From IMG/VR virus record IMGVR_UViG_3300037475_000211, positions 1 to 64,000 of that record: DNA of 64,000 bases; one strand, 5' to 3'. The notes below the pieces were generated by a model. That model was given only the letters and a program-made list of their open reading frames with translations, searched no databases and had not been told where the DNA came from. Of the stretch, positions 13,340-41,754 are shown in pieces. The DNA comes from a virus. Position 1 is the stretch's first letter. Each line of letters starts with the position of its first letter. The position numbers and the translations under genes were made by a program.

Positions 13340-13663
13340 ATGTGTAATGAGTGTACTTTCTCTGAAAGTAAAAATGTTAAACATAATACTCTAAATTTAA
13401 TTAGAGTGGATAAGGATGGAAAATATCATTGTAAAACTTATCCGTGTTATGAATTGTTTTTTGAAAATAAAAAGCTTTGGTCTGCATATAAAATTCATGG
13501 TCGACTTCACAGAGAAGACGGACCAGCTGTTATTGAAATTTCTAAAGATGGCGTAGAACATTATAGTTGGTATATTGACGGATTTTCGTTGAAGGTTTCT
13601 TCTCAAGAAGAATTTGTAAATTCTACCTCTTATAAAGAGTGGAAACTAAGAGCATTCAAATAA
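13340..13663 (+). CDS. MCNEC family protein 1 with LRAF tail, 107 aa
   Basis: First of five tandem paralogues. Starts MCNEC, has a CKTYPCYELF segment aligned with HCLTxPAR of the others, keeps the LHREDGPAV repeat seen at 12840, then WYIDGF, SSQEEF and the end YKEWKLRAFK. The two N-terminal cysteines and the central Cys could bind zinc. This member links the HRxDGPA protein to the rest of the array. Confidence 0.75.
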   Translation: MCNECTFSESKNVKHNTLNLIRVDKDGKYHCKTYPCYELFFENKKLWSAYKIHGRLHREDGPAVIEISKDGVEHYSWYIDGFSLKVSSQEEFVNSTSYKEWKLRAFK

Positions 13664-13917
13664 TGTGTGATGAATGTTTTGCAGAAGACATTGATAGTGA
13701 AAAACTTATTAATACAAATTATATTAAAATAACTAATCATTTTAGAATAAATACAGACAAATTTCATTGTTTAACTGGTCCAGCAAGAACTTTTGTTTCT
13801 AAAAATAAAATTTATTATTACTGGTATGTTGATGATATTTGGATACATTGTTTTTCTCAAAAAGAATTTGAGTCTTCTAAAGAGTATAGAGTTTGGAAGT
13901 TAAAGGCTTTCACATAA
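13663..13917 (+). CDS. MCNEC family protein 2 with LKAF tail, 84 aa
   Basis: MCDEC start, FHCLTGPARTF, YWYVDDIW, SQKEFESS and the end VWKLKAFT. An upstream in-frame ATG (13639) lies within the previous gene; the TAATG junction at 13661-13665 supports this start. Tandem duplicate of its neighbours. Confidence 0.75.
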   Translation: MCDECFAEDIDSEKLINTNYIKITNHFRINTDKFHCLTGPARTFVSKNKIYYYWYVDDIWIHCFSQKEFESSKEYRVWKLKAFT

Positions 13918-14147
13918 TGTGTAACGAATGCTTTGAAGTTAAAGAGGGTTGTAATTTAATGAGAAGATCAATTAGTAATGGATCTTCTCATTGTTTATCT
14001 GATCATGCAATTATACTTAATTATTATAAGGCTGGATTAAAAATAGCTGATTGGTATATTAATGGGATTCGTATTAATGTAGGATCTCAAGAAGAATTTG
14101 AAAAGAGCAAAGAATATAGAGAGTGGAAGCTGCGAGTGTTTAAATAA
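13917..14147 (+). CDS. MCNEC family protein 3 with LRVF tail, 76 aa
   Basis: MCNEC start, HCLSDHAIIL (the PAR of the family is altered to HAI), DWYINGIRINVGSQEEF and the end EWKLRVFK. TAATG junctions on both sides. Confidence 0.75.
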   Translation: MCNECFEVKEGCNLMRRSISNGSSHCLSDHAIILNYYKAGLKIADWYINGIRINVGSQEEFEKSKEYREWKLRVFK

Positions 14148-14407
14148 TGTGTAATGAATGTTTTATCAAAGAGTTTAACTATTTTCACGGAAAATTAGTT
14201 CAAAGAATTCAAAGATTTAATAAAAGTCATTATCATTGTTTAACTGAACCCGCTAGATTATTCATTTATAATGATAATTTTGGCAGTTCTTTTGCCGACG
14301 TCGAAAAAGGTTGGTTCATTAATGGTATTGAAGTAAAAGTTTCTTCCCAAGAAGAACTAAAGAATTCTAATGAATATAGGATATGGAAGATGAGGGCATT
14401 TCATTAA
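14147..14407 (+). CDS. MCNEC family protein 4 with MRAF tail, 86 aa
   Basis: MCNEC start, YHCLTEPARLF, GWFINGIEVKVSSQEEL and the end IWKMRAFH. Starts on the stop of copy 3. Confidence 0.75.
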   Translation: MCNECFIKEFNYFHGKLVQRIQRFNKSHYHCLTEPARLFIYNDNFGSSFADVEKGWFINGIEVKVSSQEELKNSNEYRIWKMRAFH

Positions 14408-14411
14408 AATA

Positions 14412-14645
14412 ATGTGCAATGAATGTACTAAAAAAGATTTTAATCTTGCTGATGGAGTTTTAATTCAAAGAATTAATAAAGGATATTATCATTGTTTAAC
14501 TTCTCCTGCTAGAGTTTTTATTAATAACTCTGGTAAAGTAGATAAAGATTGGTATATTGGTGGCATGCGAGTTAGAGTTTCTTCCAAAGAAGAGCTTGAG
14601 AAATCTTTAGAGTATAGAGAGTGGAAGATAAAAGCATTTAAGTGA
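14412..14645 (+). CDS. MCNEC family protein 5 with IKAF tail, 77 aa
   Basis: MCNEC start, YHCLTSPARVF, DWYIGGMRVRVSSKEEL and the end EWKIKAFK. Last of the tandem array; followed by the RNA ligase gene with its own ribosome site. Confidence 0.75.
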   Translation: MCNECTKKDFNLADGVLIQRINKGYYHCLTSPARVFINNSGKVDKDWYIGGMRVRVSSKEELEKSLEYREWKIKAFK

Positions 14646-19371: not shown

Positions 19372-19634
19372 ATTGTCCTTTATGTTCAAACAAAGATAAT
19401 CGACATGAAGATTTAGATCATGAATTTGTTTTAAACACTGTATATTGGTATCTTTATAAAAGAGATTTAGATCGAGAATCTTTTAATTTAATAGGACAGT
19501 CATCAGCCGGTGAATATTATGTAGCAAAAAATTATATAACTACTAATAGAGTTAATTTAAATCTAAAATATTTAGATATTAAAGATGCTCCACAACTTTT
19601 AATTAAAATCAATAAATTAAAATTATACTTATGA
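19368..19634 (+). CDS. CPxC zinc-ribbon protein with LKLYL tail, 88 aa
   Basis: Starts MNCPLC, then DHEFVLNTVYWYL and a beta-rich body. Ends INKLKLYL. Same plan as the products at 19631, 20709, 22714, 36039 and 36360: N-terminal C-P-x-C, a D/N-H-x-F element after a second cysteine (missing here), an aromatic strand, and the tail. Confidence 0.7.
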   Translation: MNCPLCSNKDNRHEDLDHEFVLNTVYWYLYKRDLDRESFNLIGQSSAGEYYVAKNYITTNRVNLNLKYLDIKDAPQLLIKINKLKLYL

Positions 19635-19909
19635 TTTGTCCTTACTGTAAAAAAGATCATACTGGTGATGTTTATGGTAAAATCTTTTGTAAAGATTTTA
19701 ATCATATATTTGTTTTCCTTCTTGAAAATAAATGTTGGTATCTTTTTTTAGGAAAAAATTGTAAGCCCTATAACCAAATAGGTATGGCAGATAATCATTC
19801 TAAATTTTACATTAGAAATGCTGATGAAATAATTTCAATTTCAGAATTTAAAATAGATAATTGTTTTGAAGTATTAAAAAGATTTAATAGATTAAAAGCG
19901 TTTAGTTAA
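19631..19909 (+). CDS. CPxC zinc-ribbon protein with LKAFS tail, 92 aa
   Basis: MICPYCKKDH, FCKDFNHIFVF, CWYLFLGK, and the end RFNRLKAFS. Overlaps the previous gene (ATGA). Likely a zinc ribbon formed by Cys3, Cys6 and the CKDFNH segment. Confidence 0.7.
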   Translation: MICPYCKKDHTGDVYGKIFCKDFNHIFVFLLENKCWYLFLGKNCKPYNQIGMADNHSKFYIRNADEIISISEFKIDNCFEVLKRFNRLKAFS

Positions 19910-19920
19910 AAGGATAATTA

Positions 19921-20109
19921 ATGAGCTCAAACATAATAACATATATAGTTGTCATTATTAATGAGGATGGCACTAAAACAAATTACGGATCTGTTCGTCA
20001 TCCTGATGGAAAAATTAAAGCAGAGAAGGTTGCAGAAGCTCTTAGAGCTGAAGGTAAAGTAGTAGAAGTTATTCCTTATATTGGACCAACAACAAGGTTT
20101 GATGTATAA
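19921..20109 (+). CDS. hypothetical protein, 62 aa
   Basis: Beta hairpin and helix pattern (YIVVIINEDGTKTNYG, KAEKVAEALRAEGKVVEV). It might be a small regulatory or inhibitor fold; not recognised. Has AAAGGATAATTA as ribosome site. Confidence 0.65.
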   Translation: MSSNIITYIVVIINEDGTKTNYGSVRHPDGKIKAEKVAEALRAEGKVVEVIPYIGPTTRFDV

Positions 20110-20491
20110 TATAGATTATATGTTTTTTCTTAAAAAAGAATTATCTGATTGGACAAATGATCATGATCATGGCTATAATCATATAAGATTTATTAAATCA
20201 GATTTAGGAAAAAATTCTGGTTATTTTATTGGATTGAATTGTATAGAAAGTTTAATAGATCACTCAAAACCTTACATGTATGCAAGTTATGCATTAGATC
20301 TTAAGTATAAAAAAATAAATCTTAAAATATTGAGGTGGAATATTTTTGGATCAGAAGTATTTGATGAGCTTATTAAGCATTATAATAAATCATTTAATGA
20401 TCCTAAATATACATTTGATCAATTAGATTATGCTAAAAATAATATAGATAATTTTATAGTTAAGTTTGATAAACTAAAGGTATACATATGA
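20102..20491 (+). CDS. small protein with LKVYI tail, 129 aa
   Basis: N-terminal helix (FFLKKELSDW) followed by DHDHGYNH and beta-rich parts; ends FIVKFDKLKVYI. The start overlaps the end of the previous gene. Belongs to the tail-motif set by its end only. Confidence 0.7.
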   Translation: MYNIDYMFFLKKELSDWTNDHDHGYNHIRFIKSDLGKNSGYFIGLNCIESLIDHSKPYMYASYALDLKYKKINLKILRWNIFGSEVFDELIKHYNKSFNDPKYTFDQLDYAKNNIDNFIVKFDKLKVYI

Positions 20492-20712
20492 TTTGTGTAA
20501 AACATAAAGACGGCAGAATTATTTTAATGGCAGCAGAAAATAATCTTAAACCTATGCTCTTTTATCCCCAAAGTAAGAATTGGGAGCCTGCTCTTATTTC
20601 TGGGGAAGAATTAAATGATTTCTCTGATATTAGAGATACTAATTTAGTCAATTTGTTGTTAACAGATGCTAAGATTTTTGCCGAAAAGAACCCTCAATTT
20701 AAAATTAAATGA
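20488..20712 (+). CDS. hypothetical protein, 74 aa
   Basis: Beta strands (ICVKHKDGRIILMAA) and a helix towards the end (NLVNLLLTDAKIFAEK). Coupled by overlaps to two tail-motif genes but lacks the tail itself. Unknown. Confidence 0.65.
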   Translation: MICVKHKDGRIILMAAENNLKPMLFYPQSKNWEPALISGEELNDFSDIRDTNLVNLLLTDAKIFAEKNPQFKIK

Positions 20713-20972
20713 ATTGTCCTTGTTGTAAGGTTCCATCTATAGAACGCGATAGTCTGTTTGTATGTGATACAGAAGATCATGAATTTACCTTTGTTAAAAG
20801 TTCAGGTAGCTGGTGGTTTAATATGATTAAACCTAATTATCAAATAGGGCGTGATATTAATTCTGATTATTATGTGGGCATCAAACATAATATATTTAAT
20901 ATTTCAAAAATTAACGTGCAAGATTGTGTAGATTATTTAAATAGATTTTTAAAATTAAAGAGCTTTCTTTAA
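20709..20972 (+). CDS. CPxC zinc-ribbon protein with LKSFL tail, 87 aa
   Basis: MNCPCCKVPSI ... VCDTEDHEFTFVKSSGSWW, then a strand-rich part and the end RFLKLKSFL. Four candidate zinc ligands (Cys3, Cys6 or Cys5, Cys in VCDT, His of DHEF). Confidence 0.7.
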   Translation: MNCPCCKVPSIERDSLFVCDTEDHEFTFVKSSGSWWFNMIKPNYQIGRDINSDYYVGIKHNIFNISKINVQDCVDYLNRFLKLKSFL

Positions 20973-20985
20973 AAAGGAGTTGAAT

Positions 20986-21171
20986 ATGGAAGAACAGTTT
21001 TTAGGTTTGACTAAAAAAGGCGCTCAACAAAAAGCAGAACAAATGAATCTAATATTTAGATTAATTAGTGTTAATGGGGAGCCTATGTTTTCATATCCCT
21101 CTGATATTAGAACAGACCGTATTTGTGTGGAAATTAATAATGGAGCTGTAACTGTAGCGAAATTACAATGA
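20986..21171 (+). CDS. I78 / potato-inhibitor-like protease inhibitor, 61 aa
   Basis: The sequence runs LGLTKKGAQQKAEQ, a helix, then an exposed loop and DIRTDRICVEINNGAVTVAK. The D-x-R-x-D-R-I/L-x-V-x-x-x-x-G-x-V pattern is the core of peptidase inhibitor I78 and related inhibitors. There is no signal peptide, so it would act inside the cell. The identification is by pattern; the final Cys-Gly of typical I78 is absent. Confidence 0.6.
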   Translation: MEEQFLGLTKKGAQQKAEQMNLIFRLISVNGEPMFSYPSDIRTDRICVEINNGAVTVAKLQ

Positions 21172-21635
21172 TTAGAGCTATTGCCTTTAAAGGTGGATAT
21201 GTTGAGGGTAATACTTGTTCTTGGATGGTATATCAAGTATCAGATAATTTTGCCTTTTCAACTGCTAAAGAAGCATTAGCCTCTTTATCACATTATTTAT
21301 TTCATAAATTTTCTTTAGATTATAAACATATTAATATTGATGATTGGAACCAATTTATTTGGTCTCTGTTTGGATCAGATAATGATAGTTATGGATATGA
21401 TTCTTCTGAAGAAGCTCAGCAGGCTTGTGGTGCTGATTGGCTATATTATGTTTATGGATTTGATGTCCCATTAAATGAAATGATAGTTATTCATGAACGA
21501 GCAGAGAATATTTTTCTGTGTTCTTTAAATGATAATCATAAAGAATTTTATGCTAAGTTTGATGAGGATGATGATTTTTCTGATGGTCCAAATGATATGG
21601 ATTTAGAAGCTTATAAAGAGTTAATTGAGGAATAA
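21168..21635 (+). CDS. hypothetical acidic protein, 155 aa
   Basis: Mixed alpha/beta with STAKEALASLSHYLFHKFSL, a stretch naming YGYDSSEEAQQACGADWLYYVYG and a strongly acidic end (FDEDDDFSDGPNDMD). Overlaps the inhibitor gene by ATGA-type junction. Not recognised. Confidence 0.65.
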   Translation: MIRAIAFKGGYVEGNTCSWMVYQVSDNFAFSTAKEALASLSHYLFHKFSLDYKHINIDDWNQFIWSLFGSDNDSYGYDSSEEAQQACGADWLYYVYGFDVPLNEMIVIHERAENIFLCSLNDNHKEFYAKFDEDDDFSDGPNDMDLEAYKELIEE

Positions 21636-21637
21636 AA

Positions 21638-21961
21638 ATGGATCCAAGACTTGAATTAGCTCTTACAGAAGGAGCAATTGCTCAAATGAAAAATAAAGAA
21701 AAAGCAGATCTTCTTCTTAAGAAAAGAATTTATAAAGAATTGCCTCGTGCAAAGAAATGGATTTCTAAATATTTATTTAAAAAAATTAAAGAAGATCTTT
21801 CTAAAGGAGAAAAGTTTACTTATATTTCTTGGCATAGCCCAACTTTTCCTGTCTTTTTTAAGTTTAGTATGATTGCTTTGTTTGATGAAATATCTAAAAT
21901 AGATGGACTGACTGTTAAGTGGTCAATATTTAAAAATGATATTATGATTTATTGGGATTAA
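21638..21961 (+). CDS. hypothetical basic protein, 107 aa
   Basis: Lys-rich helices in the first 60 residues (KKRIYKELPRAKKWISKYLF) and a short alpha/beta end (LTVKWSIFKNDIMIYWD). Located just upstream of the channel gene. Unknown. Confidence 0.65.
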   Translation: MDPRLELALTEGAIAQMKNKEKADLLLKKRIYKELPRAKKWISKYLFKKIKEDLSKGEKFTYISWHSPTFPVFFKFSMIALFDEISKIDGLTVKWSIFKNDIMIYWD

Positions 21962-21962
21962 T

Positions 21963-22721
21963 ATGACGGACAAATTAAAGAAAAAGATTTATGATCTTGT
22001 AGAAGCTGAAGGTGAGCACGACTTCTTTGATCATTTTATTCTTACTTTAGTTGTACTTAATATTTTTGCCGTAGGATTAGAAACAATTGAAAGTATTAAA
22101 GCACATTATTATAATCAATTCTTTTACTTTAGATATTTTTCTATTCTAATATTTTCAATAGAATATGTTTTAAGAATTTGGTGCTGTAATATTCTTCCAG
22201 AATATAGTCATCCTTTGTGGGGTAGATTAAAGTTTGCAATTAGACCAATTGTTTTAATAGATTTAATATCTATTTTCCCATTCTATTTTCCAATTGGCAA
22301 ATTAGATTTAAGGCATCTTCAAATGTTTAAGATGCTTCGATACTCACATTCTGTTCAAGATTTGATTAAAATAATTAAAACACAGGGTAAAGCATTGCTT
22401 AGTGGTATTATTTTAATTGGTATGTTAATGGTAATTTCTGGATCTATTCTTTATTATTTAGAATATCCAGAACAACCAAAGGTTTTTTCTAGTATACCAG
22501 CTTCTATGTGGTGGGCAATTGTCACCATTACTACTGTTGGATATGGAGATATGTTTCCAATATCTTTCTTAGGTAAGCTATTTGCAGCAATAACTGCTAT
22601 ATGTGGCATTGGTTTATTTGCCTTGCCAGCAGGTATTATGGGTGCAGCTTTCTTAGATAATGTGAAAGAACAAAGGGCTCCATCTAAGTTTTGTGGCAAT
22701 TGTGGAAGTAAACATGACTGA
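21963..22721 (+). CDS. voltage-gated-type potassium channel, 252 aa
   Basis: Six hydrophobic segments in the order of Kv-type channels: S1 about 24-40, S2 about 53-75, S3 about 95-110, a short S4 region with LRHLQMFKMLRYSHS, S5 about 147-166, pore loop SMWWAIVTITTVGYGD with the selectivity filter TVGYGD at 191-196, and S6 to about 230. Length and order match bacterial ion transport family channels. S4 has fewer regular arginines than usual, so voltage sensing is uncertain. The C-terminus ends CGNCGSKHD, a small possible zinc knuckle. It would sit in the inner membrane and pass K+. Confidence 0.9.
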   Translation: MTDKLKKKIYDLVEAEGEHDFFDHFILTLVVLNIFAVGLETIESIKAHYYNQFFYFRYFSILIFSIEYVLRIWCCNILPEYSHPLWGRLKFAIRPIVLIDLISIFPFYFPIGKLDLRHLQMFKMLRYSHSVQDLIKIIKTQGKALLSGIILIGMLMVISGSILYYLEYPEQPKVFSSIPASMWWAIVTITTVGYGDMFPISFLGKLFAAITAICGIGLFALPAGIMGAAFLDNVKEQRAPSKFCGNCGSKHD

Positions 22722-23022
22722 TACTATACCAAATTGTCCTGTTTGTAAAACTAAACTTATTGCTGATTCTAGATATCTTTTAGGTCCTCCAGAAGATATG
22801 TATATGTGTGACACCAGTTATCATAGTTTTGTTTATTTTAAATCTACAAATAGATTTGGTTTAGTTATTGAAATTAATAAAGATCAAATAATAGCATCTA
22901 TTGATTTAATTTCAATTAATAAAAATAATTTTCATGTTCCAGAAAATTATTGTGTAAATAATTGTTATGAAATTTTAATGAGTTTATATGAAAAATATAA
23001 TAGTAATAGAGCATTCTCATGA
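22714..23022 (+). CDS. CPxC zinc-ribbon protein with NRAFS tail, 102 aa
   Basis: TIPNCPVCKTKL, then MCDTSYHSFVYF and a beta-rich part; ends KYNSNRAFS. The start at 22714 overlaps the channel stop. The tail is a diverged form (NRAFS) of LKAFS. Confidence 0.7.
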   Translation: MTDTIPNCPVCKTKLIADSRYLLGPPEDMYMCDTSYHSFVYFKSTNRFGLVIEINKDQIIASIDLISINKNNFHVPENYCVNNCYEILMSLYEKYNSNRAFS

Positions 23023-23282
23023 TTTTAACAGATGAAATTAAAGCAAAGTTAACAGCAGAACAACTGGTTGTTGTTGAGAAATGGATTCTTGAACGTCAAG
23101 AAAGAGAAAAGATTATCTCTAAATTAGAAGCAGGAGAACTTTCGCCTTTAGAAGCCATGTATCAATTGACTGCTACTTCTCCAGAATATTGTGAACACAA
23201 TAGATCAATAATGAGTAATTGTCATTGTTGTGATGAAATAGAACAAATTATTAATCCTGATTTTTCTAAAGAATTAGAATAA
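23019..23282 (+). CDS. hypothetical protein with C-terminal Cys/His cluster, 87 aa
   Basis: N-terminal helices (DEIKAKLTAEQLVVVEKWIL), then EYCEHNRSIMSNCHCCDEIE, a possible zinc site. Followed by a leader with motif copy 4. Unknown. Confidence 0.65.
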   Translation: MILTDEIKAKLTAEQLVVVEKWILERQEREKIISKLEAGELSPLEAMYQLTATSPEYCEHNRSIMSNCHCCDEIEQIINPDFSKELE

Positions 23283-23303
23283 TATTATTGTCTCCCTGGA
23301 ACG

Positions 23304-23319
23304 TCCCATCGTATAACGG
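23304..23319 (+). repeat. TCCCATC-N3-TAACGG motif, copy 4
   Basis: Perfect match with N3 = GTA, continuing TAGTCATCAG. Located 25 bases upstream of the ATG at 23344 in a 61-base gap. Confidence 0.75.
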
Positions 23320-23343
23320 TAGTCATCAGCACTATAAGTAACC

Positions 23344-24546
23344 ATGCAATCAGTTATATTTGATATTCCTGCCACGAAAAAGTCTTCTGTTGAAGTTCAA
23401 CTCTCTAAGTTTAATAAGAGAGCTGAGAGGCTTAATATGGAAGCTATTGTTTGGTCTTGGGGAAAAGCTTTTAATAAAACTATTGATCGTGTTATCAATA
23501 CTGGCGTTGATTCATTTACTGAAACTCAAAGTGTTTTATTTATTCCAATTACTATTGAGGGCAATTTAGATGTTTCTTTTGATGGATGGGAGTTTGTTGC
23601 AACTCTTCAACATTTAAAAACTGGCGAGAATATTATTAGAACTTTAAAAGGATCTAATTACGAGATTCCGGTTCAATATAGAAATTCTGGTAGTGCTTGT
23701 GAACATTGTCGAGTTAAAAGATATCGTAAGGATACTTATTTATTAAGCCATAAAAATGGTGATACTGTCCAAGTCGGAAGCAGTTGCATTAAAGACTTTC
23801 TAGGAGATAATACTCCAGAAAATATTTTAAACAAAGCAAGTCTTGTTTCTGAGCTTCATTGGTACTTAAGCGGCTCTGCTACTGGTGGTGCTGGTGGGGA
23901 CATAGTATTTCCTATCTTAGATTTTTTAAGTAAAACATCTGCTATTATTTCTAAATATGGCTGGGTTAGTAAGTCAAAAGCTTATGAAGAAGGAGCAATG
24001 TCTACTGCATCAATGGTTTTGGATGATTTACTTCCCCCTCAAAATGCAGGATGTCGACCCATTCATGTTTCAAATGCTGATATTTTCAAGGCACAAGACG
24101 CATTAAATTGGGTAGAATCATTGACTGATGAACAGTGTTTAGAGTCTGATTATTGTTATAATATTAGAACCATTTGTAGGAGCGGAATGGTTGGCATGAA
24201 AACGGTTGGATTTGCTGCTAGTATCATTTCTAGTTATGAAAACCATTTAAAGAAAACTACAGCAAAAGTAAAGGCTGTCTCTAATCATGTTGGTAATGTA
24301 AAAGATAAAGTGGAGTTTAAATTAACTCTAAAGGTAGAATCTACTTTTGCAACCAGATATGGTCTTACTCGACTTTATATTTTTAATGATAAAGATGGAA
24401 ATGAATTTGTTTGGATGACATCTAAAGATGAAATGTTGAAAGAGAAATCTAAATATTTAGTTAGTGGTACTATTAAAGCGCATGATAATTATAAAGGGAC
24501 GGCACAAACACATTTAACTCGTTGTAAGGTTTCAACTTCATTATGA
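23344..24546 (+). CDS. zinc-finger/OB-fold hypothetical protein, 400 aa
   Basis: The N-terminal 100 residues are alpha/beta. Residues about 117-155 hold CEHCRVKRYRKDTYLLSHKN and VGSSCIKDFLG, which I recognise from a widespread phage and plasmid family of unknown function. The C-terminal 80 residues look like an OB fold (DKVEFKLTLKVESTF ... KYLVSGTIKAHDNYKG), so nucleic-acid binding is likely. It is one of the longest genes here and follows a motif copy, so it may head a transcription unit. Confidence 0.7.
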   Translation: MQSVIFDIPATKKSSVEVQLSKFNKRAERLNMEAIVWSWGKAFNKTIDRVINTGVDSFTETQSVLFIPITIEGNLDVSFDGWEFVATLQHLKTGENIIRTLKGSNYEIPVQYRNSGSACEHCRVKRYRKDTYLLSHKNGDTVQVGSSCIKDFLGDNTPENILNKASLVSELHWYLSGSATGGAGGDIVFPILDFLSKTSAIISKYGWVSKSKAYEEGAMSTASMVLDDLLPPQNAGCRPIHVSNADIFKAQDALNWVESLTDEQCLESDYCYNIRTICRSGMVGMKTVGFAASIISSYENHLKKTTAKVKAVSNHVGNVKDKVEFKLTLKVESTFATRYGLTRLYIFNDKDGNEFVWMTSKDEMLKEKSKYLVSGTIKAHDNYKGTAQTHLTRCKVSTSL

Positions 24547-25253
24547 ACGATTCAATTATTGAAAAAATTCAGCATCTTCGTAAGCTTTCTGCCAGCTCTA
24601 ATATTGCGGAAGCTACTACAGCAGCTTTGATTGCTGACAAATTAATTTCTAAATTTAGGATTTCTGAAGAAGAAATTAATGCTCATGCTACTGAAAAGCC
24701 CGAGCAATCTGGTGATATTTTATATGAATCAGCCAGATCAATTACTTGGAAATCTAATCTTGCCAGCCGCCTTTCTAAACATTATGGCTGCTTTATCTAT
24801 AATGATACTGCTCGTTCTGAGAAAGGGCGGCAGTTAACTCGCCTTAGATTAGTGGGTCTTAAATCAGATATGAGTTTAGTGCATTACATGTTTAACTGGT
24901 TAGTATTTGAGATCGAAAGGCTTAATAAGAAGAATAAGGGACAAGGACATATATTCTGCAATTCATTCTGTGAAGGGGCAGTTTCAGGAATTACCCAACA
25001 ACTTCAAGCCTCCAAAGAAGAAGAAAAGAAAGAAGCCACCGTTAATAATCAGTCTCAAGCATTAGCTACATTAGATGCTCGTCATGCTTTAGCTGAATCT
25101 TATATTAGAGGTATTATGAAGTTAAAGACAGTTAATAAGCCTAACTATAGTCATCTTGATGGTAATGCTTATGATGATGGAGTAAAAGCTGGAAAAAATC
25201 TTCATTTGGGAAAAGTAATGACTGGTGTTGGCAACAAGTTGTTGTCTAAGTAA
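24543..25253 (+). CDS. DUF2786-type protein, 236 aa
   Basis: The N-terminus matches the DUF2786 pattern: IIEKIQHLRKLSAS, EATTAALIADKLISKFRISE. The remainder (residues 65-230) resembles the DUF7168-type region that often follows it, with SNLASRLSKHYGCFIY and FCEGAVSGI. Both occur in phages and plasmids with unknown role. Overlaps the previous gene by ATGA, indicating joint expression. Confidence 0.75.
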   Translation: MNDSIIEKIQHLRKLSASSNIAEATTAALIADKLISKFRISEEEINAHATEKPEQSGDILYESARSITWKSNLASRLSKHYGCFIYNDTARSEKGRQLTRLRLVGLKSDMSLVHYMFNWLVFEIERLNKKNKGQGHIFCNSFCEGAVSGITQQLQASKEEEKKEATVNNQSQALATLDARHALAESYIRGIMKLKTVNKPNYSHLDGNAYDDGVKAGKNLHLGKVMTGVGNKLLSK

Positions 25254-25257
25254 CAAT

Positions 25258-25310
25258 ACTTATGGTGTTTCACTCGCCGTAAGTGGTGGAGGTGATCAAA
25301 TCTGATCGCC
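25258..25310 (+). promoter_or_regulatory. two adjacent hairpins with an extended anti-16S complement
   Basis: ACTTATGG/CCGTAAGT (25258/25277) forms an 8-pair stem with one wobble, and GGTGATCA/TGATCGCC (25291/25303) forms another. The second contains GGAGGTGATC, a ten-base complement to the 3' end of bacterial 16S rRNA, yet no start codon follows at translation distance. May be a terminator, an attenuator or a leader element of the next gene. Confidence 0.45.
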
Positions 25311-25352
25311 CTATAAGTTTTAGTATTTTCTTTAAAAAAATACATTTTTATT

Positions 25353-25614
25353 ATGAATAATACATATGATATTCTTATTAACAATAGGCTAATAAATATA
25401 GAATTTGATTTACATATATCGCGGCACTATCCATTAAAATCATTTTTATATACTAATTGGAGTGAGCCCTTTGAAGATAAAATATATCATGATTTTTTTA
25501 GTCCTTAAGGATCAAATTGATTGGACTGTAGGTCCAATATATTATCCTGCTGAGTTTCGTAATTTTTGTGATTCTTATATTAAAAGACTTTTAAATTTGA
25601 AAGCATTTATTTAA
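25353..25614 (+). pseudogene. DWEPAF-family gene with a frameshift at a T7 run
   Basis: The frame from 25353 encodes a family N-terminus (YDILINNRLINIEFDL, TNWSEPFEDKIYHDFF) and stops early at a TAA just after a run of seven T. Removing one T restores the homologous continuation (LKDQIDWTVGPIYYPAEF ... RLLNLKAFI) up to 25614. Two intact paralogues follow directly. It is a mutation, a sequencing error in the run, or slippage. Confidence 0.75.
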
Positions 25615-25615
25615 T

Positions 25616-25861
25616 ATGGAATTAAGTTATATTTTGAATATAAACAACATAAAGTATGATGTTTCTATTGCAATTTATAATGATCGTACAATTTTTACGG
25701 ATTGGGAACCGGCTTTTAATGATGGATATGCTCATGATTTTGCCATTAGAAATAATAAAATTCAATGGTGGACACATAATGAAGATAAATTTCCTCCCGA
25801 ATTTAAAGATTATTGCGACAATTTAGTAAAAAAATTTATTAAATTAAAAGCGTTTATTTAA
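25616..25861 (+). CDS. DWEPAF-family protein with LKAFI tail, 81 aa
   Basis: Beta-rich (YILNINNIKYDVSIAIYN), the family string TDWEPAFNDGYAHDFAI, then KIQWWT, PPEFKDYCDNLVKKFIKLKAFI (last part is the tail). Tandem paralogue of both neighbours. Unknown function. Confidence 0.75.
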   Translation: MELSYILNINNIKYDVSIAIYNDRTIFTDWEPAFNDGYAHDFAIRNNKIQWWTHNEDKFPPEFKDYCDNLVKKFIKLKAFI

Positions 25862-25863
25862 TT

Positions 25864-26115
25864 ATGGAATTTAAATTTACTATATCTATAAATAATATTA
25901 ATTATAATATTGAAGGTTTAATTCATGAAAGTAAAACTTCAGGAATGATTCTTACGAATTGGGAACCAGCATTCCATAATGATATGATTCATGATTTTAA
26001 TATCTATAATAAAAAGATTAATTGGATATTTGGAAATACAAAATATCCGTATGAGTTTATTGATTACTGCAATAATATTGTAGATAAGTTTTTTAAATTA
26101 AAAGCATTTTCGTAG
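25864..26115 (+). CDS. DWEPAF-family protein with LKAFS tail, 83 aa
   Basis: Same plan as the previous gene: INNINYNIEGLIHE, TNWEPAFHNDMIHDFNI, KINWIFG, PYEFIDYCNNIVDKFF and the end KLKAFS. The tail differs from that of its sister only in the last residue. Confidence 0.75.
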   Translation: MEFKFTISINNINYNIEGLIHESKTSGMILTNWEPAFHNDMIHDFNIYNKKINWIFGNTKYPYEFIDYCNNIVDKFFKLKAFS

Positions 26116-26142
26116 CGGTATATAGATTTATTGAGAGGTTTT

Positions 26143-26490
26143 ATGAAATATTTATTAATTACAGCATGTTTACTTTCGGCTAGTATTGCGGTTGCATCTC
26201 CTATAGAGAGAACAATTTTCTCTTCATTAGAATCTGGCAAATCTAAATCATATGATTTAACAGTATCAAAAGGTAAGACTTCTATTGCTGTAGAGCAAAC
26301 AGATGATGGAACTAAACCAGTATTAACATGTACCTTTTCTTCAGATGGTGAAGTTGGGTTGGAGCAAAAGAAAGTAACTCGATGTCTTGGCAAACTTGAT
26401 TTAAAGAAAGAAATTAAGTTAACTGTTAAAATTACTAATGAATCTTCTAAGACTTTAGACTTTCAAGTAAAACAGTTTGCCGTTAAATGA
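26143..26490 (+). CDS. secreted periplasmic protein, 115 aa
   Basis: Classic signal peptide MKYLLITACLLSASIAVAS with cleavage near residue 19. The mature part is a beta-rich domain of about 95 residues with two cysteines (LTCTF and TRCLG), a likely disulfide. Start set at 26143 after GAGAGG. No family recognised. Confidence 0.75.
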   Translation: MKYLLITACLLSASIAVASPIERTIFSSLESGKSKSYDLTVSKGKTSIAVEQTDDGTKPVLTCTFSSDGEVGLEQKKVTRCLGKLDLKKEIKLTVKITNESSKTLDFQVKQFAVK

Positions 26491-27086
26491 TAACATTTGC
26501 AATTACTGGGAACATTGCTACAGGCAAAAGTACTGTTACTAAAACCATATCTGAAAAATATGGAATACCAATTGTAGATGTTGATCTAATCATTAGACAG
26601 GTAGTTGAGCCTGGTAAGCCTGGATTGCAGTATTTAGTAAATGCATTAGGTAGTGGTATTTTAAAAGATGATGGATATTTAAATAGAGCCTACATAAGTA
26701 ATTTAGTTTTTAACGATAAATTATCAATGAATAAACTAAATGCAATTATGGATCCTCTTGTTAAAGAAGAAGTATTTAATCAAGTTCAAGATCTTCATAG
26801 CCAGGGGCATTATTTAGTTGGTGTCGATTATCCTCTTCTATTTGAATCTGGTGTAAATAATTTATATTATCCAATTATTGTAATTTCTTGTTCTCCAGAA
26901 TTACAACTTAAAAGACTTATGGCTCGCAATAATTTCACTAAAGAACAAGCTTTAGTTCGTATTGATAGTCAAATGTCTTTACAAGATAAGATGGCAAAGT
27001 CAGATTTTGTCATTCATAATAACAATGGATTATCAGAGTTATCTTCTGATATACATTCTATTGTTAATAAATTGAAACAATTATAA
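26487..27086 (+). CDS. coaE: dephospho-CoA kinase
   Basis: P-loop GNIATGKST at residues 8-16, then IPIVDVDLIIRQVVEPG (the D-x-D substrate region), DDGYLNRAYISNLVF, VGVDYPLLFESG and the LID-like RLMARNNFTKEQALVRIDSQ. Full-length at 199 aa. It performs the last step of coenzyme A synthesis, phosphorylating the ribose 3'-OH. The window also holds PanD, which feeds the same pathway. Confidence 0.9.
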   Translation: MITFAITGNIATGKSTVTKTISEKYGIPIVDVDLIIRQVVEPGKPGLQYLVNALGSGILKDDGYLNRAYISNLVFNDKLSMNKLNAIMDPLVKEEVFNQVQDLHSQGHYLVGVDYPLLFESGVNNLYYPIIVISCSPELQLKRLMARNNFTKEQALVRIDSQMSLQDKMAKSDFVIHNNNGLSELSSDIHSIVNKLKQL

Positions 27087-27113
27087 AAACGCCTGACGGC
27101 AAAGGAAAATAAT

Positions 27114-27620
27114 ATGGAACTAACACTTATTAAAATGGCTCTTGCCGTAGCATGTCAGACACTACCTACAGCATCTGTTAATGCTTATGCTGATATTATT
27201 CACGCACAATCAGTTAAATTAAATCAAGACCCCCTTATTACTGTTGCTATTATTAAACATGAAAGTAAATGTAATAGTAGTGTTATTTCTGATGACAAAT
27301 TTGACTGGGGTTTAATGCAAATTAGAGCTATGTATTATAAGGGTCCAGCTGTTAATTTACTTAATCCTTGGATCAATATTACTGTTGGTTCTTATTGGAT
27401 TCAATCAAGTTATGAATTTTGTGAGAAGCAACTTGGCAGAGAACCTGTAACTCAAGAGTGGTTGTCATGCTTCCAGGGTACTTGTAAACATCATGGTAAA
27501 TGGTGTCAGCCAACAAAAATGACTAATAGGGTAGAAGAATATGCTACTTGCTTGCAACATAACGTTATATCTAATATGAGTGTAGAAAATTGTGATGCAA
27601 TTTATGCTCAAAGGTTATGA
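27114..27620 (+). CDS. lytic transglycosylase (SLT-like), 168 aa
   Basis: SLT signature: IKHESKCNSSVIS with catalytic Glu50, then FDWGLMQIR (66-71) and a later TNRVEEYATCL. A weak hydrophobic N-terminus (LIKMALAVACQTL) may be a signal. Six cysteines suggest an exported, disulfide-stabilised enzyme. It would cleave peptidoglycan between MurNAc and GlcNAc. A GCC-TGAC-GGC mini-hairpin lies in its leader (27091-27100). Confidence 0.8.
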   Translation: MELTLIKMALAVACQTLPTASVNAYADIIHAQSVKLNQDPLITVAIIKHESKCNSSVISDDKFDWGLMQIRAMYYKGPAVNLLNPWINITVGSYWIQSSYEFCEKQLGREPVTQEWLSCFQGTCKHHGKWCQPTKMTNRVEEYATCLQHNVISNMSVENCDAIYAQRL

Positions 27621-27943
27621 AATTTTATTATAATTTTTTAAAAGATTCAAAGTTCAAAGAAGATATTGAGCTGTGTTGGGCTACTGGTAATGCTAATCCA
27701 GGAAAAGAATTTTTTGAAACTGAATATGTTAATGGGTTTTTATTTGAAATTTTTTATAAAGGATTCTGTCTTGCCTTTTACAAGCATTCATTTCCTATAG
27801 AATATTTATATTCTGTTTTATATTTTGATAATAAAATTATTAAAGATAATAATGAAAATTTTCCTATTACAGAAATTATTTCCTTTATTGAAAGAGAGAT
27901 AGAATATTGTAATAAATATTTAAACCTGAAATCATTTTCATGA
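27617..27943 (+). CDS. small protein with LKSFS tail, 108 aa
   Basis: Aromatic and beta-rich body (FYYNFLKDSKFKEDIELCW, FYKGFCLAFYKHSF), a helix near the end (ISFIEREIEYCNKYL) running into NLKSFS. First of five consecutive tail genes with ATGA overlaps. Confidence 0.7.
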   Translation: MKFYYNFLKDSKFKEDIELCWATGNANPGKEFFETEYVNGFLFEIFYKGFCLAFYKHSFPIEYLYSVLYFDNKIIKDNNENFPITEIISFIEREIEYCNKYLNLKSFS

Positions 27944-28284
27944 ATAATCTTCTTAAAAAATCTTTCTATTCTAAATTAGATTTAAATAAAGGAATTCTAA
28001 ATTTAGGATCCAAAATATATTTAGATGCTGGATGGATTTACTGTAATATAGAATATGAAAACTTCTGCATAGATATTAGAAGAATTTCTTCTTCTCTTCT
28101 TAAAGAAGATGAATTTGAAATTATGGTTAAAGATTATAAAAATATAGTTGAGAGCCATTTTAGTGGGTCCAGTTATGCTATTGTATTTAAAGAAATTTGT
28201 GGTAGAAGTTCAATATTAGAATCTATGCAAAAAGCCATAGATTATGGTCATAAAAGGTTTAATAGGTTAAGAGCTTTCTTATGA
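27940..28284 (+). CDS. LDxNxG-family protein with LRAFL tail, 114 aa
   Basis: N-terminus FYSKLDLNKGILNLG, then DAGWIYCNIEYENFCIDIRR; a C-terminal helix (ESMQKAIDYGHKRFNRL) passes into RAFL. Homologous to the first half of the product at 17117. Confidence 0.7.
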   Translation: MNNLLKKSFYSKLDLNKGILNLGSKIYLDAGWIYCNIEYENFCIDIRRISSSLLKEDEFEIMVKDYKNIVESHFSGSSYAIVFKEICGRSSILESMQKAIDYGHKRFNRLRAFL

Positions 28285-28589
28285 AGTATTCAGAATTAGA
28301 TTTTAATGATGGAAAAATAACTTGGGACTCATATAAAAATTATCCTGAAGAGTCTCATTTTAAAAAACATATGCTTGATCAAGATATGTTATGTATACAA
28401 TATAAAGATTATACAATTGATTTAGGTTGGTATCAAACAGTATATTTGATTGCAATTATTGATAATAATTCTTTAGAATGGAATCCACTTTACTCAATTA
28501 AAGTATTAAATCATGATGAGGTTTTTGATAAGCTTCAAGAAGTAATTAATAACGCTGAAAGTCTTTTTAATTTAAAAGTGTTTTTATGA
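28281..28589 (+). CDS. LDxNxG-family protein with LKVFL tail, 102 aa
   Basis: Starts YSELDFNDGKITWDSY, body with YKDYTIDLGWYQTVYLIA, ends NNAESLFNLKVFL. Same N-terminal signature as the products at 27940, 28586 and 31077. Confidence 0.7.
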   Translation: MKYSELDFNDGKITWDSYKNYPEESHFKKHMLDQDMLCIQYKDYTIDLGWYQTVYLIAIIDNNSLEWNPLYSIKVLNHDEVFDKLQEVINNAESLFNLKVFL

Positions 28590-28921
28590 AGTTTTCTGAA
28601 ATAGATTTTAAAGGTTATAAAACTACCTGGCTGATTACGCCAGCAGCTATTAAAAAATTATTTAAAACAAAATTTACACATAAATATTCTCGTACTATCG
28701 GTACAATTCATTTAAATAAATATTATATTTCTTTTTGGTGGTATTGTAGAGAGAAAAATAGTTATATGTCTGTAACGGTTTTTGAAAGAGCCACTAAACT
28801 TTTTATGTCTTCAGTTTTTATAATAGATTTTAAAGCTTATCAATTTAAAGATTTTTGCGCTTTATTAAATGATCAAATTTCTTATTATCATAGATTAGAA
28901 AATTTACAATGTTTTGCGTAG
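28586..28921 (+). CDS. LDxNxG-family protein with diverged LQCFA tail, 111 aa
   Basis: Starts FSEIDFKGYKTTW, contains YYISFWWYCREKNSYMSVTV and ends YHRLENLQCFA. The tail is a degenerate version, useful for judging which positions tolerate change. Confidence 0.65.
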   Translation: MKFSEIDFKGYKTTWLITPAAIKKLFKTKFTHKYSRTIGTIHLNKYYISFWWYCREKNSYMSVTVFERATKLFMSSVFIIDFKAYQFKDFCALLNDQISYYHRLENLQCFA

Positions 28922-28930
28922 ATTACATTA

Positions 28931-29188
28931 ATGATTAAATTGGGTCCAAAATTTTTATCATCATTAGAAATATATAATGGCAGATTGCATTATAATAAAT
29001 CAGGACTAGATATTGAATACCCAATTTATGCCATTTGGTTTGATTTAGAAAATAAAACTGTGGCTATCTCAGATTTAATAATATTTAAAGATTGGTATAT
29101 TATTAAATCAAATTTAAAGAAAAAAGAAATTCAATCTCTAATAACTAAATATTTTAACACTTATAATAATTTAAAAGTGTTTTATTAA
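28931..29188 (+). CDS. small protein with LKVFY tail, 85 aa
   Basis: Short beta-rich body (SLEIYNGRLHYNKSG, YAIWFDLENKTVAISDL) and a helix (KKEIQSLITKYFNTYNNL) leading into KVFY. Last of the five-gene run. Confidence 0.65.
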   Translation: MIKLGPKFLSSLEIYNGRLHYNKSGLDIEYPIYAIWFDLENKTVAISDLIIFKDWYIIKSNLKKKEIQSLITKYFNTYNNLKVFY

Positions 29189-36359: not shown

Positions 36360-36650
36360 ATGAACTGCCCTTATTGTAATAAAATATTGTCAAGTAATCC
36401 AAATCCAATCACTTATAATTGTTTTTTGAATAATGATAAACATGAATTTTCTTGTGGAGATAAGAAAGACGATTTATGGTATTTATTATTAGATAATGAG
36501 AAAATCCAGGTTGGAAAATATCCCGGCGGACATTATATTTTATTTAAAAATAAAGCTGGTGGAGAAAAAATAATTAAAATTGAGCCATTTGCAATTGAAG
36601 ATTCATTATTAATTATTGATAAATATAAAAATTTAAGAGCTTTTAGTTGA
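36360..36650 (+). CDS. CPxC-type zinc-ribbon protein with LRAFS tail, 96 aa
   Basis: MNCPYCNKIL, NCFLNNDKHEFSC, WYLLLDNEKIQVG, and the end KYKNLRAFS. Tandem with the previous gene. Confidence 0.7.
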   Translation: MNCPYCNKILSSNPNPITYNCFLNNDKHEFSCGDKKDDLWYLLLDNEKIQVGKYPGGHYILFKNKAGGEKIIKIEPFAIEDSLLIIDKYKNLRAFS

Positions 36651-36683: not shown

Positions 36684-37421
36684 ATGAAATTTAAAGATAT
36701 TTTAAAAAATAAATGGTTTTTGGGAGTTACTTTCTTTCTAGTTTATGCAGTTTTAATTAATTGGAAATTTGCAATTATATTAATGGTATCTCTTGGCTTT
36801 CATGAAAGCGGTCATGTTTGGGCGATGAAAAGAAAAGGAATTAAAACTTCTGGGTTTTATTTCATTCCTTTTATTGGTGGGGCGGCAATTGCAGAAGAAC
36901 AATTTAAATCATTTAAGCAACAAGCTTACATTGCTATTATGGGTCCTGTTTGGGGGATGAGTTTAGCGTTTTTAACAATGATTATTGGATTTATAACTAA
37001 AAATAGTTATTGTGGAATAATAGCTTCATTGATGGCAATATTTAATCTTTTTAACTTATTACCTTTAACATTATTAGATGGAGGGCAAGTATTAAAAACT
37101 ATTGTTTTATCTGTGAATCCGTTGAAAGGATTCTACATTATTAATATAATATCTATTATAACGGCAATTATAGCATTTTTAATTTTTAAAACTCCTTTTA
37201 TTATAATATTTGCGCTGCTATCTGTTATTCAAACTAATATTGAAAAATCAAATTTTATTAAAAGTAAAGGAAGTGCTTTACTTAAAAGGCTAAATAAAAA
37301 AGAAATTATGATTGTTTCTGCACATTGGATTCTAACTACTATAGGATTAATGTTTATCTATTTCCTTAGTCAAGGATTAGTTTTTGTATTACTAGGTCAT
37401 ACTTCTATTAAGATTGATTAA
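36684..37421 (+). CDS. M50 site-2-protease-like metalloprotease, 245 aa
   Basis: HESGH at 40-44 within a hydrophobic helix (SLGFHESGHVWAM) gives the zinc motif, and LLPLTLLDGGQV supplies the second-site Asp132 of the LDG motif. Six or so membrane helices. M50 enzymes cleave substrates inside the membrane, for example anti-sigma factors or signal peptides. Unusual cargo for a phage; the target might be host envelope regulators. Full length for a minimal member. Confidence 0.85.
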   Translation: MKFKDILKNKWFLGVTFFLVYAVLINWKFAIILMVSLGFHESGHVWAMKRKGIKTSGFYFIPFIGGAAIAEEQFKSFKQQAYIAIMGPVWGMSLAFLTMIIGFITKNSYCGIIASLMAIFNLFNLLPLTLLDGGQVLKTIVLSVNPLKGFYIINIISIITAIIAFLIFKTPFIIIFALLSVIQTNIEKSNFIKSKGSALLKRLNKKEIMIVSAHWILTTIGLMFIYFLSQGLVFVLLGHTSIKID

Positions 37422-39934: not shown

Positions 39935-40306
39935 ATGAAACAAAGTAAGAATATTAATTTAATATTTATCAATGTTGTGGCGGCTTCTTTATTAGCTGGC
40001 TGTTCTACACCACAAGATAATAAGCAATGTGTTGATGAAAATGGTGTAGTGATTGATGAATCTAATTGTAATCCTGATAGTGTTGGTTATAGCCCTCACT
40101 ATCGCTGGTATTATGGTGGAGGTTTGTTTAATAGGGGCATGCGAGTAAATGGTGGCAGCTATTATCCTAACAATGGTCGTTCTTATGTAACACCTTCACA
40201 AAGAGCTATTTCTGGTGGAGAAAGTGTTTCTGGAGGATCGAAAGTATCTTCTCCAATTAGTCGTGGTGGATTTGGAACAACCGGGCATTCTTCAGGCGGA
40301 GAATAA
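39935..40306 (+). CDS. YgiB-like (DUF1190-type) lipoprotein, 123 aa
   Basis: Lipoprotein signal ending LLAGCS (Cys23). The mature part has paired cysteines (QCVDENG, SNCNPD), a Tyr/Gly-rich segment (YRWYYGGGLF) and a Ser/Gly-rich tail ending GFGTTGHSSGGE. In enterobacteria ygiB (DUF1190) stands directly before ygiC, and here a YgiC-like synthetase follows. The name rests on context and composition more than on sequence. Confidence 0.65.
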   Translation: MKQSKNINLIFINVVAASLLAGCSTPQDNKQCVDENGVVIDESNCNPDSVGYSPHYRWYYGGGLFNRGMRVNGGSYYPNNGRSYVTPSQRAISGGESVSGGSKVSSPISRGGFGTTGHSSGGE

Positions 40307-40307
40307 G

Positions 40308-41456
40308 ATGTTAAGAAAAACTACTTCTGTAAGAAAAAATTGGGAAAAGACTATTGAATCTCAAGGGTTTTTATTTCATTCAGTTGAAGGTAAACCTTAT
40401 TGGGATGAGTCTGCATATTATGAGTTTACTTCTGCACAAGTAGATGAATTAGAAGCTGCTACTAATACTTTACATGAGATGTGTTTAGCTGCTGTACAGC
40501 ACGTTATTGACAACAAACTATATGCTAAGCTTCATATTCCTGAATGGGCAATTCCTTTAATTGAATATTCTTGGAACAACGAAACACCTGCTATTTATGG
40601 TCGATTTGATTTTTCTTATGATGGAAAATCTTCTCCCAAGATGTTAGAGTATAATGCGGACACTCCGACTTCTTTATTAGAGTCTGGTGTTATTCAGTGG
40701 TTTTGGATGAAGGATAAGTTTCCTGCCGCCGATCAATTTAATTCTATTCATGAAAAATTGGTTGCCAAATGGACTGAGTTAAAAGACTATTTGAATTTTG
40801 GTCCCTTATATTTTACTGGACTTGATATGATTGAAGACTATATGAATCTTCAATATATGATGGAGACTGCTAAGCAAGGTGGACTTGAAGTAAAGGAAAT
40901 TAATATTGCCGATATTGGTTGGCATAATATTGATCAAAAGTTTATTGATAATGAGTACTATACCATTACTAATATGTTTAAACTTTATCCTTGGGAGTGG
41001 TTATTGCATGAAGAATTTGGCAAAAACATTGCAGCATGCTTTGATAAGACTTTTTGGATTGAACCACCATGGAAACTTATCCTTTCTAATAAAGGAATTC
41101 TACCTATTTTATGGGAATTAAATCCAAATCATCCTAACTTGTTGCCGGCATTCTTTGATAAGAATCCTGCTCTTGGAGATAAATTTATTACAAAACCGCT
41201 TTATTCTCGTGAAGGTTCTAATATAACTATTTTTGATGAATCTTCTAAAGAGCTAAAGGTGATGGAAACTGATGGTGAATATGGTGAAGAAGGAGTTATC
41301 TTCCAAAAGTTTGCACCATTAGCTGATTTTGATGGCAATCATCCAATGATTGGTAGTTGGGTGATTGATGGAGTTTCGGCTGGTATTGGTATCAGAGAAG
41401 ATAAGACTTTGATTACTGGAAATTTTAGTCGCTTTGTTCCGCACATCTTTAAATAA
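40308..41456 (+). CDS. glutathionylspermidine synthase-family ATP-grasp protein (YgiC-like), 382 aa
   Basis: Recognisable GSP-synthase strings: GRFDFSYDGKSSPKMLEYNA, DTPTSLLESGVIQW, WIEPPWKLILSNKGILPILW, HPNLLPAFF, KPLYSREGSNI, and QKFAPLADFDG-H-MIGSWV near the end. These are the ATP-grasp C-terminal domain shared by Gss and YgiC/YjfC. It lacks the amidase domain. It would join an amine and a carboxylate using ATP; the substrate is unknown. Start set at 40308. Confidence 0.85.
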   Translation: MLRKTTSVRKNWEKTIESQGFLFHSVEGKPYWDESAYYEFTSAQVDELEAATNTLHEMCLAAVQHVIDNKLYAKLHIPEWAIPLIEYSWNNETPAIYGRFDFSYDGKSSPKMLEYNADTPTSLLESGVIQWFWMKDKFPAADQFNSIHEKLVAKWTELKDYLNFGPLYFTGLDMIEDYMNLQYMMETAKQGGLEVKEINIADIGWHNIDQKFIDNEYYTITNMFKLYPWEWLLHEEFGKNIAACFDKTFWIEPPWKLILSNKGILPILWELNPNHPNLLPAFFDKNPALGDKFITKPLYSREGSNITIFDESSKELKVMETDGEYGEEGVIFQKFAPLADFDGNHPMIGSWVIDGVSAGIGIREDKTLITGNFSRFVPHIFK

Positions 41457-41460
41457 TTTA

Positions 41461-41754
41461 ATGTCTTTATCTAAAATTTACAGAGTTTCACCCAAGAAAG
41501 AATATAATGGTAGAACCGGAAGAAACTTTACATTTATTTGCCAAAAAAGAATAAAGTTTTTCTTTCTTTATTTTTGGACTAATATAGATAGTAATTCATA
41601 TTATACGTCAGAAGACGCAGAAGTTTTTCTTAAATCTTATTTAAGAGAAAAGTATTATGTTAAATATTTTTGTATTGAAAATAACTTATCTATTTTTGAT
41701 GGTGAAACTCTAATTGAGTTAGAAAAGAAAACAAAATTGAAAGCATTTCTTTAA
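41461..41754 (+). CDS. small protein with LKAFL tail, 97 aa
   Basis: Basic aromatic first half (IYRVSPKKEYNGRTGRNF, RIKFFFLYFWTN), then SEDAEVFLKSYLREKYYVKY and the end KTKLKAFL. Paralogue of the next gene (S-x-x-x-A-E-x-F/Y-L-x-x-x-L pattern). Confidence 0.65.
   Translation: MSLSKIYRVSPKKEYNGRTGRNFTFICQKRIKFFFLYFWTNIDSNSYYTSEDAEVFLKSYLREKYYVKYFCIENNLSIFDGETLIELEKKTKLKAFL

What the first reader, a model, noticed from the sequence alone, without database searches (positions are those of the whole stretch)
21963..22721. Phage-encoded six-helix potassium channel
A TVGYGD filter and six membrane segments give a full-length Kv-type channel, rare in phages. The C-terminal CxxC may add regulation. 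It could collapse or tune the host membrane potential, for example to time lysis or block superinfection.
Basis: partly seen in the sequence, partly recalled or inferred. Interest (0 to 1): 0.7.

Follow-up and report, generated by a model that had tools for sequence, protein, structure and literature searches.

The report
Phage potassium channel with shortened sensor
A large bacterial virus carries an intact gene for a six-helix potassium channel of a common bacterial family, but the helix that normally senses voltage has lost about half its length and most of its charges, so the channel probably works as a potassium leak in the infected cell's membrane.

Summary
21963-22721 (+) encodes an intact 252-aa, six-helix channel with a TTVGYGD filter (Pfam Ion_trans 1.3e-27; AlphaFold2 pLDDT 92). 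The surrounding genes are phage genes. It belongs to a widespread bacterial "ion transporter" family, and the closest relative found is a Pyrinomonadaceae MAG protein at 47-50% identity. The C-terminal CxxC is the usual CPHCG tail of that family, not a phage addition. Phage K+ channels recur: about 100 IMG/VR contigs, and two-helix versions in KVP40-type Vibrio phages. In about a third to a half of the viral contigs checked, the channel lies next to a CI/Cro-like regulator and/or the integrase.

Its S4 helix is 12 residues, against 21 in its nearest homologue modelled the same way. The D100-R126 span is 26 residues, against 30-44 in 224 homologues. Three of the usual S4 arginines are deleted, a fourth is Gln, and the outer S2 acid is Arg57. 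Pore, PAG hinge and charge-transfer site are kept.

Best reading: a K+-selective channel with a crippled voltage sensor that pulls the infected host's membrane potential towards the K+ equilibrium. Conductance, gating and biological role are inferred, not shown. New variant of a known kind.

The parts
21963..22721 (+). Six-helix K+ channel gene, 252 aa, with truncated S4 voltage-sensor helix
22020..22082 (+). S1 helix (residues 20-40)
   Evidence: AF2 secondary structure
22119..22190 (+). S2 helix (about residues 53-76), with charge-transfer residues F64 and E67 kept and the outer acid replaced by R57 (codon 22131-22133)
   Evidence: E/D in 209 of 221 homologues at position 57, Arg in none
22245..22286 (+). 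S3 helix (residues 95-108), with invariant D100
22308..22343 (+). Truncated S4 helix (residues 116-127, LRHLQMFKMLRY), 12 residues against 21 in the nearest homologue
22386..22463 (+). S5 helix (residues 142-167)
22494..22550 (+). Pore helix (178-190) and selectivity filter TTVGYGD (190-196)
22566..22676 (+). S6 helix (202-238) with PAG hinge 222-224 as in KCNQ
22692..22703 (+). C-terminal CxxC (C244, C247), equivalent of the family's CPHCG tail
21638..21961 (+). Upstream 107-aa ORF, stop one base before the channel's ATG; no known family
22714..23022 (+). Downstream 102-aa ORF overlapping the channel's last codons (ATGACTGA); N-terminal CxxC, ends in the recurrent ...RAFS tail

Best explanation
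A large phage took a bacterial KCNQ/Kv-like 'ion transporter' gene and kept its pore intact while the voltage sensor degenerated. The protein should form a tetrameric K+-selective channel in the host inner membrane whose opening depends weakly or not at all on voltage. Expressed during infection, it would act as a K+ leak that pulls the membrane potential towards the K+ equilibrium and shifts cell K+ and turgor. I think the most likely benefit is making the infected cell a worse target for competing phages whose DNA entry needs the membrane potential, as chlorovirus K+ channels are reported to do in algae. Shown here: the gene, the fold, the filter, the S4 truncation and the family origin. Inferred: tetramer, conductance, loss of voltage dependence, and biological role.
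For: Intact ORF with K+-channel families and solved KCNQ/Kv relatives. Confident model, and Kv/KCNQ chains top the structure comparison. GYGD, W184, E167 and the PAG hinge conserved. S4 12 residues against 21 in the control model of the nearest homologue, while the other helices except S6 differ by at most one residue. Shortest D100-R126 span of 225 sequences, 26 against 30-44. Three S4 Arg positions missing, Q120 where R/K is in 221 of 223, and R57 where E/D is in 209 of 221. Nested in the bacterial family on a long branch. Phage gene families around it and native base and codon composition. Precedent: Kcv depolarises algal hosts and prevents a second infection (PMC7019647).
Against: No conductance, tetramer or expression data. 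The S4 truncation rests on a single sequence, as no close sibling phage was found. R117, K123 and R126 plus the charge-transfer site (F64, E67, D100) remain, so a shifted or weakened sensor is possible. No host is known and no timing of expression could be tested. The alignment inside S4 is well anchored at both ends, but exactly which repeats were lost is a matter of choice.
Confidence: 0.55

Rival explanations
1. An ordinary, working voltage-gated K+ channel of the bacterial family carried as cargo. The short S4 is a tolerated variation and gating is still voltage dependent.
For: Charge-transfer residues F64, E67 and D100 and basic residues R117, K123 and R126 are kept. S4 length varies in the family, with spans of 30-44. 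The rest of the protein is normal.
Against: S4 is outside the range of all 224 measured homologues. The outer S2 acid that pairs with outer S4 arginines is reversed in sign to Arg57, a matching change on the partner side. Nine S4 residues fewer than the nearest relative.
Confidence: 0.22
2. A decaying or non-conducting remnant: the phage gene no longer makes a functional channel.
For: Long branch (1.1 changes per column; median 0.44). Lesions in the sensor. No sibling phage to show conservation.
Against: No stop or frameshift, tight operon-like packing with neighbours. The pore, hinge and other near-invariant residues are retained. Confident model over the whole protein.
Confidence: 0.1
3. A K+ conductance whose main use is within one infection (K+ supply, turgor or pH balance, or lysis timing) rather than exclusion of competitors.
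For: The gene sits in a cluster of small genes in a large, apparently lytic phage without obvious lysogeny genes nearby. Lytic Vibrio phages also carry K+ channels, of the two-helix type (PMC3468402).
Against: Nothing in the sequence separates this from exclusion. No lysis genes adjoin it, although an SLT-type transglycosylase lies at 27114-27620.
Confidence: 0.3
4. Host contamination or chimeric contig.
For: The nearest relatives of the channel are bacterial.
Against: Same strand, 1-base spacing and overlapping neighbours. GC 30.6% against window 30.9%, and codon usage closer to the window mean than average (rank 11 of 42). Flanks hold phage-typical families such as phrog_2319, phrog_421 and phrog_547.
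Confidence: 0.02

Closest known systems
Bacterial/archaeal 'ion transporter' family (Ion_trans PF00520, KCNQ/Kv-like, CPHCG tail), e.g. L088 Pyrinomonadaceae MAG protein
   Same: Six helices, TTVGYGD, S2/S3 charge-transfer residues, PAG-type S6 hinge, C-terminal CxxC; 47-50% identity
   Different: S4 9 residues shorter with three Arg fewer, Q120, R57 instead of E/D
Animal KCNQ (Kv7) channels
   Same: Best solved sequence relatives (5e-27), PAG hinge
   Different: No calmodulin-binding C-terminal domain; shorter S4
Halorubrum virus Humcor1 putative ion transport protein (QRG24137)
   Same: Virus-encoded six-helix channel with CxxC tail, 37% identity
   Different: Full-length Arg-rich S4
Vibrio phage K+ channels (phi-pp2, KVP40, nt-1, 2.275.O)
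   Same: K+ channel pore in large lytic phages
   Different: Two-helix pore only, no S1-S4
Chlorovirus Kcv
   Same: Virus-encoded K+ channel thought to depolarise the host (PMC7019647)
   Different: 82-94 aa, two helices, located in the virion membrane, eukaryotic host, not homologous beyond the pore
RexAB / Sbash gp30-31 / CarolAnn gp43-44
   Same: Prophage membrane proteins proposed to depolarise the host to block other phages (PMC7542560, PMC6426606)
   Different: Four-helix proteins with no K+ filter, two-component

Membership tests
Pfam Ion_trans (PF00520) | Match above curated cut-off | tested here: met
   97 bits against cut-off 25
K+ channels | TVGYGD-type selectivity filter with pore helix between two helices | tested here: met
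   Residues 190-196, conserved in 148 homologues; pore helix 178-190 in the model
K+ channels | Tetramer conducting K+ selectively | not testable with these tools
   Only monomer prediction available
Voltage-gated K+ (Kv) channels | Six helices with S1-S4 domain | tested here: met
   AF2 model; Kv/KCNQ top structure matches
Voltage-gated K+ (Kv) channels | S4 with four or more regularly spaced Arg/Lys | tested here: not met
   Only R117, K123, R126 at the triplet positions, with Q120; S4 12 residues against 21
Voltage-gated K+ (Kv) channels | Charge-transfer site: aromatic and acid in S2, Asp in S3 | tested here: met
   F64, E67, D100
Voltage-gated K+ (Kv) channels | Outer acidic residue in S2 | tested here: not met
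   R57; E/D in 209 of 221 homologues
Voltage-gated K+ (Kv) channels | Voltage-dependent opening | not testable with these tools
   Needs electrophysiology
KCNQ (Kv7) | Calmodulin-binding cytoplasmic C-terminal domain | tested here: not met
   Protein ends 14 residues after S6
NCBIfam PRK10537 voltage-gated K+ channel protein | Score over equivalog cut-off | tested here: not met
   35.5 bits against 425
Chlorovirus Kcv / two-helix phage channels | Two-helix pore-only protein | tested here: not met
   Six helices
Known anti-phage defence proteins (PADLOC) | Match to a PADLOC model | tested here: not met
   No match at E<=0.01

The most novel reading that the evidence does not exclude
A phage has turned a voltage-gated six-helix K+ channel into a constitutive K+ leak by cutting S4 repeats while keeping the whole fold. 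This would be a natural sensor-disabled Kv channel, and part of an overlooked class of phage K+ channels (lysogeny-module cargo in temperate phages, early or middle genes in lytic giants) that set the host membrane potential to exclude rivals.
Probability: 0.3. Interest if true: 0.68.

Novelty: new variant of a known kind. Interest (0 to 1): 0.45.

Why it matters
If the short S4 is functional, this is a natural experiment on how little of a voltage sensor a six-helix K+ channel needs, and on whether it opens by default when the sensor is disabled. The wider survey suggests that phage-encoded K+ channels recur in nature, often next to the repressor and integrase of temperate phages. That points to a testable role in setting the membrane potential of infected or lysogenic cells.

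Tried and rejected
Single-protein scan of viral contigs for siblings of this channel found none; scans with the phage-family gene 23344-24546 and the glutathionylspermidine-synthase-like gene 40215-41456 also found no close relative of the phage. A PADLOC search gave nothing. Host contamination was considered and rejected on packing, composition and codon use. CxxC as a phage-specific regulator was rejected because it is common in the bacterial family. The two 'Acinetobacter phage MD-2021a' hits were discounted as phage evidence because their neighbours are tamB, acnB and ydhP. Relative decay of S1-S3 against the pore showed no difference from homologues (ratio 0.74, others 0.69-0.81), so degeneration is confined to S4 and R57. 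Literature searches found no paper on six-helix K+ channels in tailed phages within the held library, which does not show that none exists. One search was a mis-specified alignment (a peptide not from any database was typed in) and is not used.

Full report
OBSERVATION. The ORF 21963-22721 (+) is real: ATG start, TGA stop, 252 aa. It matches Ion_trans (1.3e-27) and Ion_trans_2 (4.6e-15) in Pfam and phrog_7872 (5.3e-38, unknown function) in PHROGs. The best solved relatives by sequence are KCNQ2 and KCNQ1 (5e-27). The AlphaFold2 model from a 67-row alignment has mean pLDDT 92.4. Its helices are 20-40 (S1), 43-77 (S1-S2 linker and S2), 95-108 (S3), 116-127 (S4), 129-140 (S4-S5 linker), 142-167 (S5), 178-190 (pore) and 202-238 (S6). 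A second-look structural alignment puts Kv4, Kv2, Kv1 and KCNQ chains at the top with Z 16-19 over 201-250 residues.

SETTING. The window belongs to a 67,329-base IMG/VR virus record. Its neighbours are phage-typical: phrog_2319 (with relatives in 312 phage records), phrog_421, phrog_547 phosphoesterase, phrog_2141 and phrog_107 exonuclease. The distant relatives of these genes lie in large phages. The upstream ORF ends one base before the channel's ATG and the downstream ORF starts inside its last codons. GC is 30.6% against 30.9% for the window, and codon usage is not an outlier (rank 11 of 42). Contamination is therefore unlikely.

FAMILY. In drawn samples of the phyla of three relatives, 23 of 396, 38 of 296 and 42 of 299 genomes have a match at 1e-30 or better. 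On a tree built without the S4 columns, the window protein falls inside the bacterial family near a Pyrinomonadaceae MAG protein (50% identity over the kept columns) on a long branch; support for its exact place is weak. The C-terminal CxxC is the family's usual CPHCG tail: 46 of 76 and 58 of 81 bacterial homologues carry a CxxC in their last 60 residues.

WHAT IS UNUSUAL. Homologues have an S4 of the form LRxLRxLRLxRLxRLFKLxRYS. The window protein has LRHLQMFKMLRYS. Both ends of this stretch are anchored by conserved residues (D100 and LDLR on one side, FK..RYS on the other). The D100-to-R126 span is 26 residues here and 30-44 in the other 148 sequences. After adding about 80 more bacterial homologues it is still 26 against 30-44 in 224 measured sequences (five more rows could not be measured). 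As a control, the nearest homologue was modelled with the same alignment: its S4 helix is 21 residues (130-150) against 12 here. S1, S2, the S4-S5 linker and S5 have equal lengths, S3 and the pore helix differ by one residue, and S6 is longer in the homologue (37 against 46). Two Arg positions present in at least 95% of homologues (counting Lys) and a third present in about 70% are deleted. Position 120 is Gln where 221 of 223 have Arg/Lys. On the partner side, position 57 in S2 is Arg where 209 of 221 have Glu/Asp and none has Arg. Identity of S1-S3 relative to the pore is otherwise like that of homologues, so the damage is confined to the gating-charge apparatus. Established knowledge of Shaker-type channels (my own knowledge, not looked up here) is that the outer four S4 arginines carry most gating charge; on that basis I infer weak or absent voltage dependence.

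HOW IT PROBABLY WORKS. The pore, filter and PAG hinge are intact, so a K+-selective tetramer is expected (inferred). With the sensor reduced, I expect a leak-like K+ conductance that pulls the host membrane towards the K+ equilibrium potential (inferred). The use I rate most likely is hindering entry of competing phages that need the membrane potential. [quoted passage not shown] Prophage systems such as Sbash gp30/31 and CarolAnn gp43/44 are proposed to depolarise cells to stop other phages (PMC7542560, PMC6426606). Turgor, K+ supply or lysis timing are not excluded.

OTHER PHAGE CHANNELS. In INPHARED, 16 of 50,697 records match this protein; two of these are evidently bacterial contigs. A two-helix Vibrio phage channel finds 46 records, 34 of them Vibrio phages, including phi-pp2 and KVP40. 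In IMG/VR, 102 candidate stretches encode relatives and 80 loci were kept. One is a 211,777-base phage contig with a full-length S4 channel and a gene related to phrog_2319. Among neighbouring genes scanned on each side of the channel, 25 of 50 upstream neighbours have HTH_3 and 20 of 52 downstream neighbours are tyrosine integrases, with 3 more large serine recombinases. I chose these neighbours from 147 listed, favouring genes on the channel's strand, so the fractions are not unbiased. The isolates Dulem virus 33 and Lactobacillus phage JNU_P5 show similar placement. The window's channel is not in such a setting.

NOVELTY. Phage and virus K+ channels are known, and this protein is a divergent member of a common family. 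The truncated-sensor six-helix form in a large phage was not seen in any other sequence here. I therefore call it a new variant of a known kind. The main weakness is that the variant rests on one sequence.

Noticed in passing
window 13340-14645, 19631-29188, 36360-36650, 41461-42026, 57708-58004: Many small ORFs end in a shared tail such as ...RLKAFS...KLKAFI...WKLRAFK. The motif [KR][LI][KR][AVS][FY] is in the last 9 residues of 13 of 154 plus-strand ORFs and never internal in 18,153 residues (looser set of 18). It could be a sorting tag or one divergent gene family, and the looser set includes the ORF right after the channel.
   Followed up: partly
L008-L087 (viral contigs), channel neighbours: In roughly a third to a half of viral contigs with a relative of this channel, the gene lies beside a CI/Cro-like HTH gene and/or the integrase, suggesting lysogeny-expressed cargo.
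   Followed up: partly
Vibrio phage KVP40 AY283928.2 86243-86701: KVP40 encodes a relative of the two-helix K+ channel with no gene annotated there, although PMC3468402 lists the potassium channel among phi-pp2 proteins not reported in KVP40.
   Followed up: no
L002, L003 (records CAKLQH020000004.1, CAKLQF020000002.1): Records filed as 'Acinetobacter phage MD-2021a' carry tamB, acnB and ydhP around the channel and look like bacterial chromosome, not phage.
   Followed up: partly
window 53431-54072 and 54305-55417: LemA-family protein followed by a TPM-domain protein; the LemA protein also matches a PHROG annotated as virion structural protein.
   Followed up: no
window 40215-41456: Glutathionylspermidine-synthase-like ATP-grasp gene (2.3e-149), with relatives in several jumbo and T4-like phages.
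   Followed up: partly
window 36684-37421: M50-family membrane protease gene in a phage.
   Followed up: no
family alignment, S3-S4 region: S4 length among homologues varies widely, apparently often by whole three-residue repeats, from 4 triplets (window) to about 9.
   Followed up: partly
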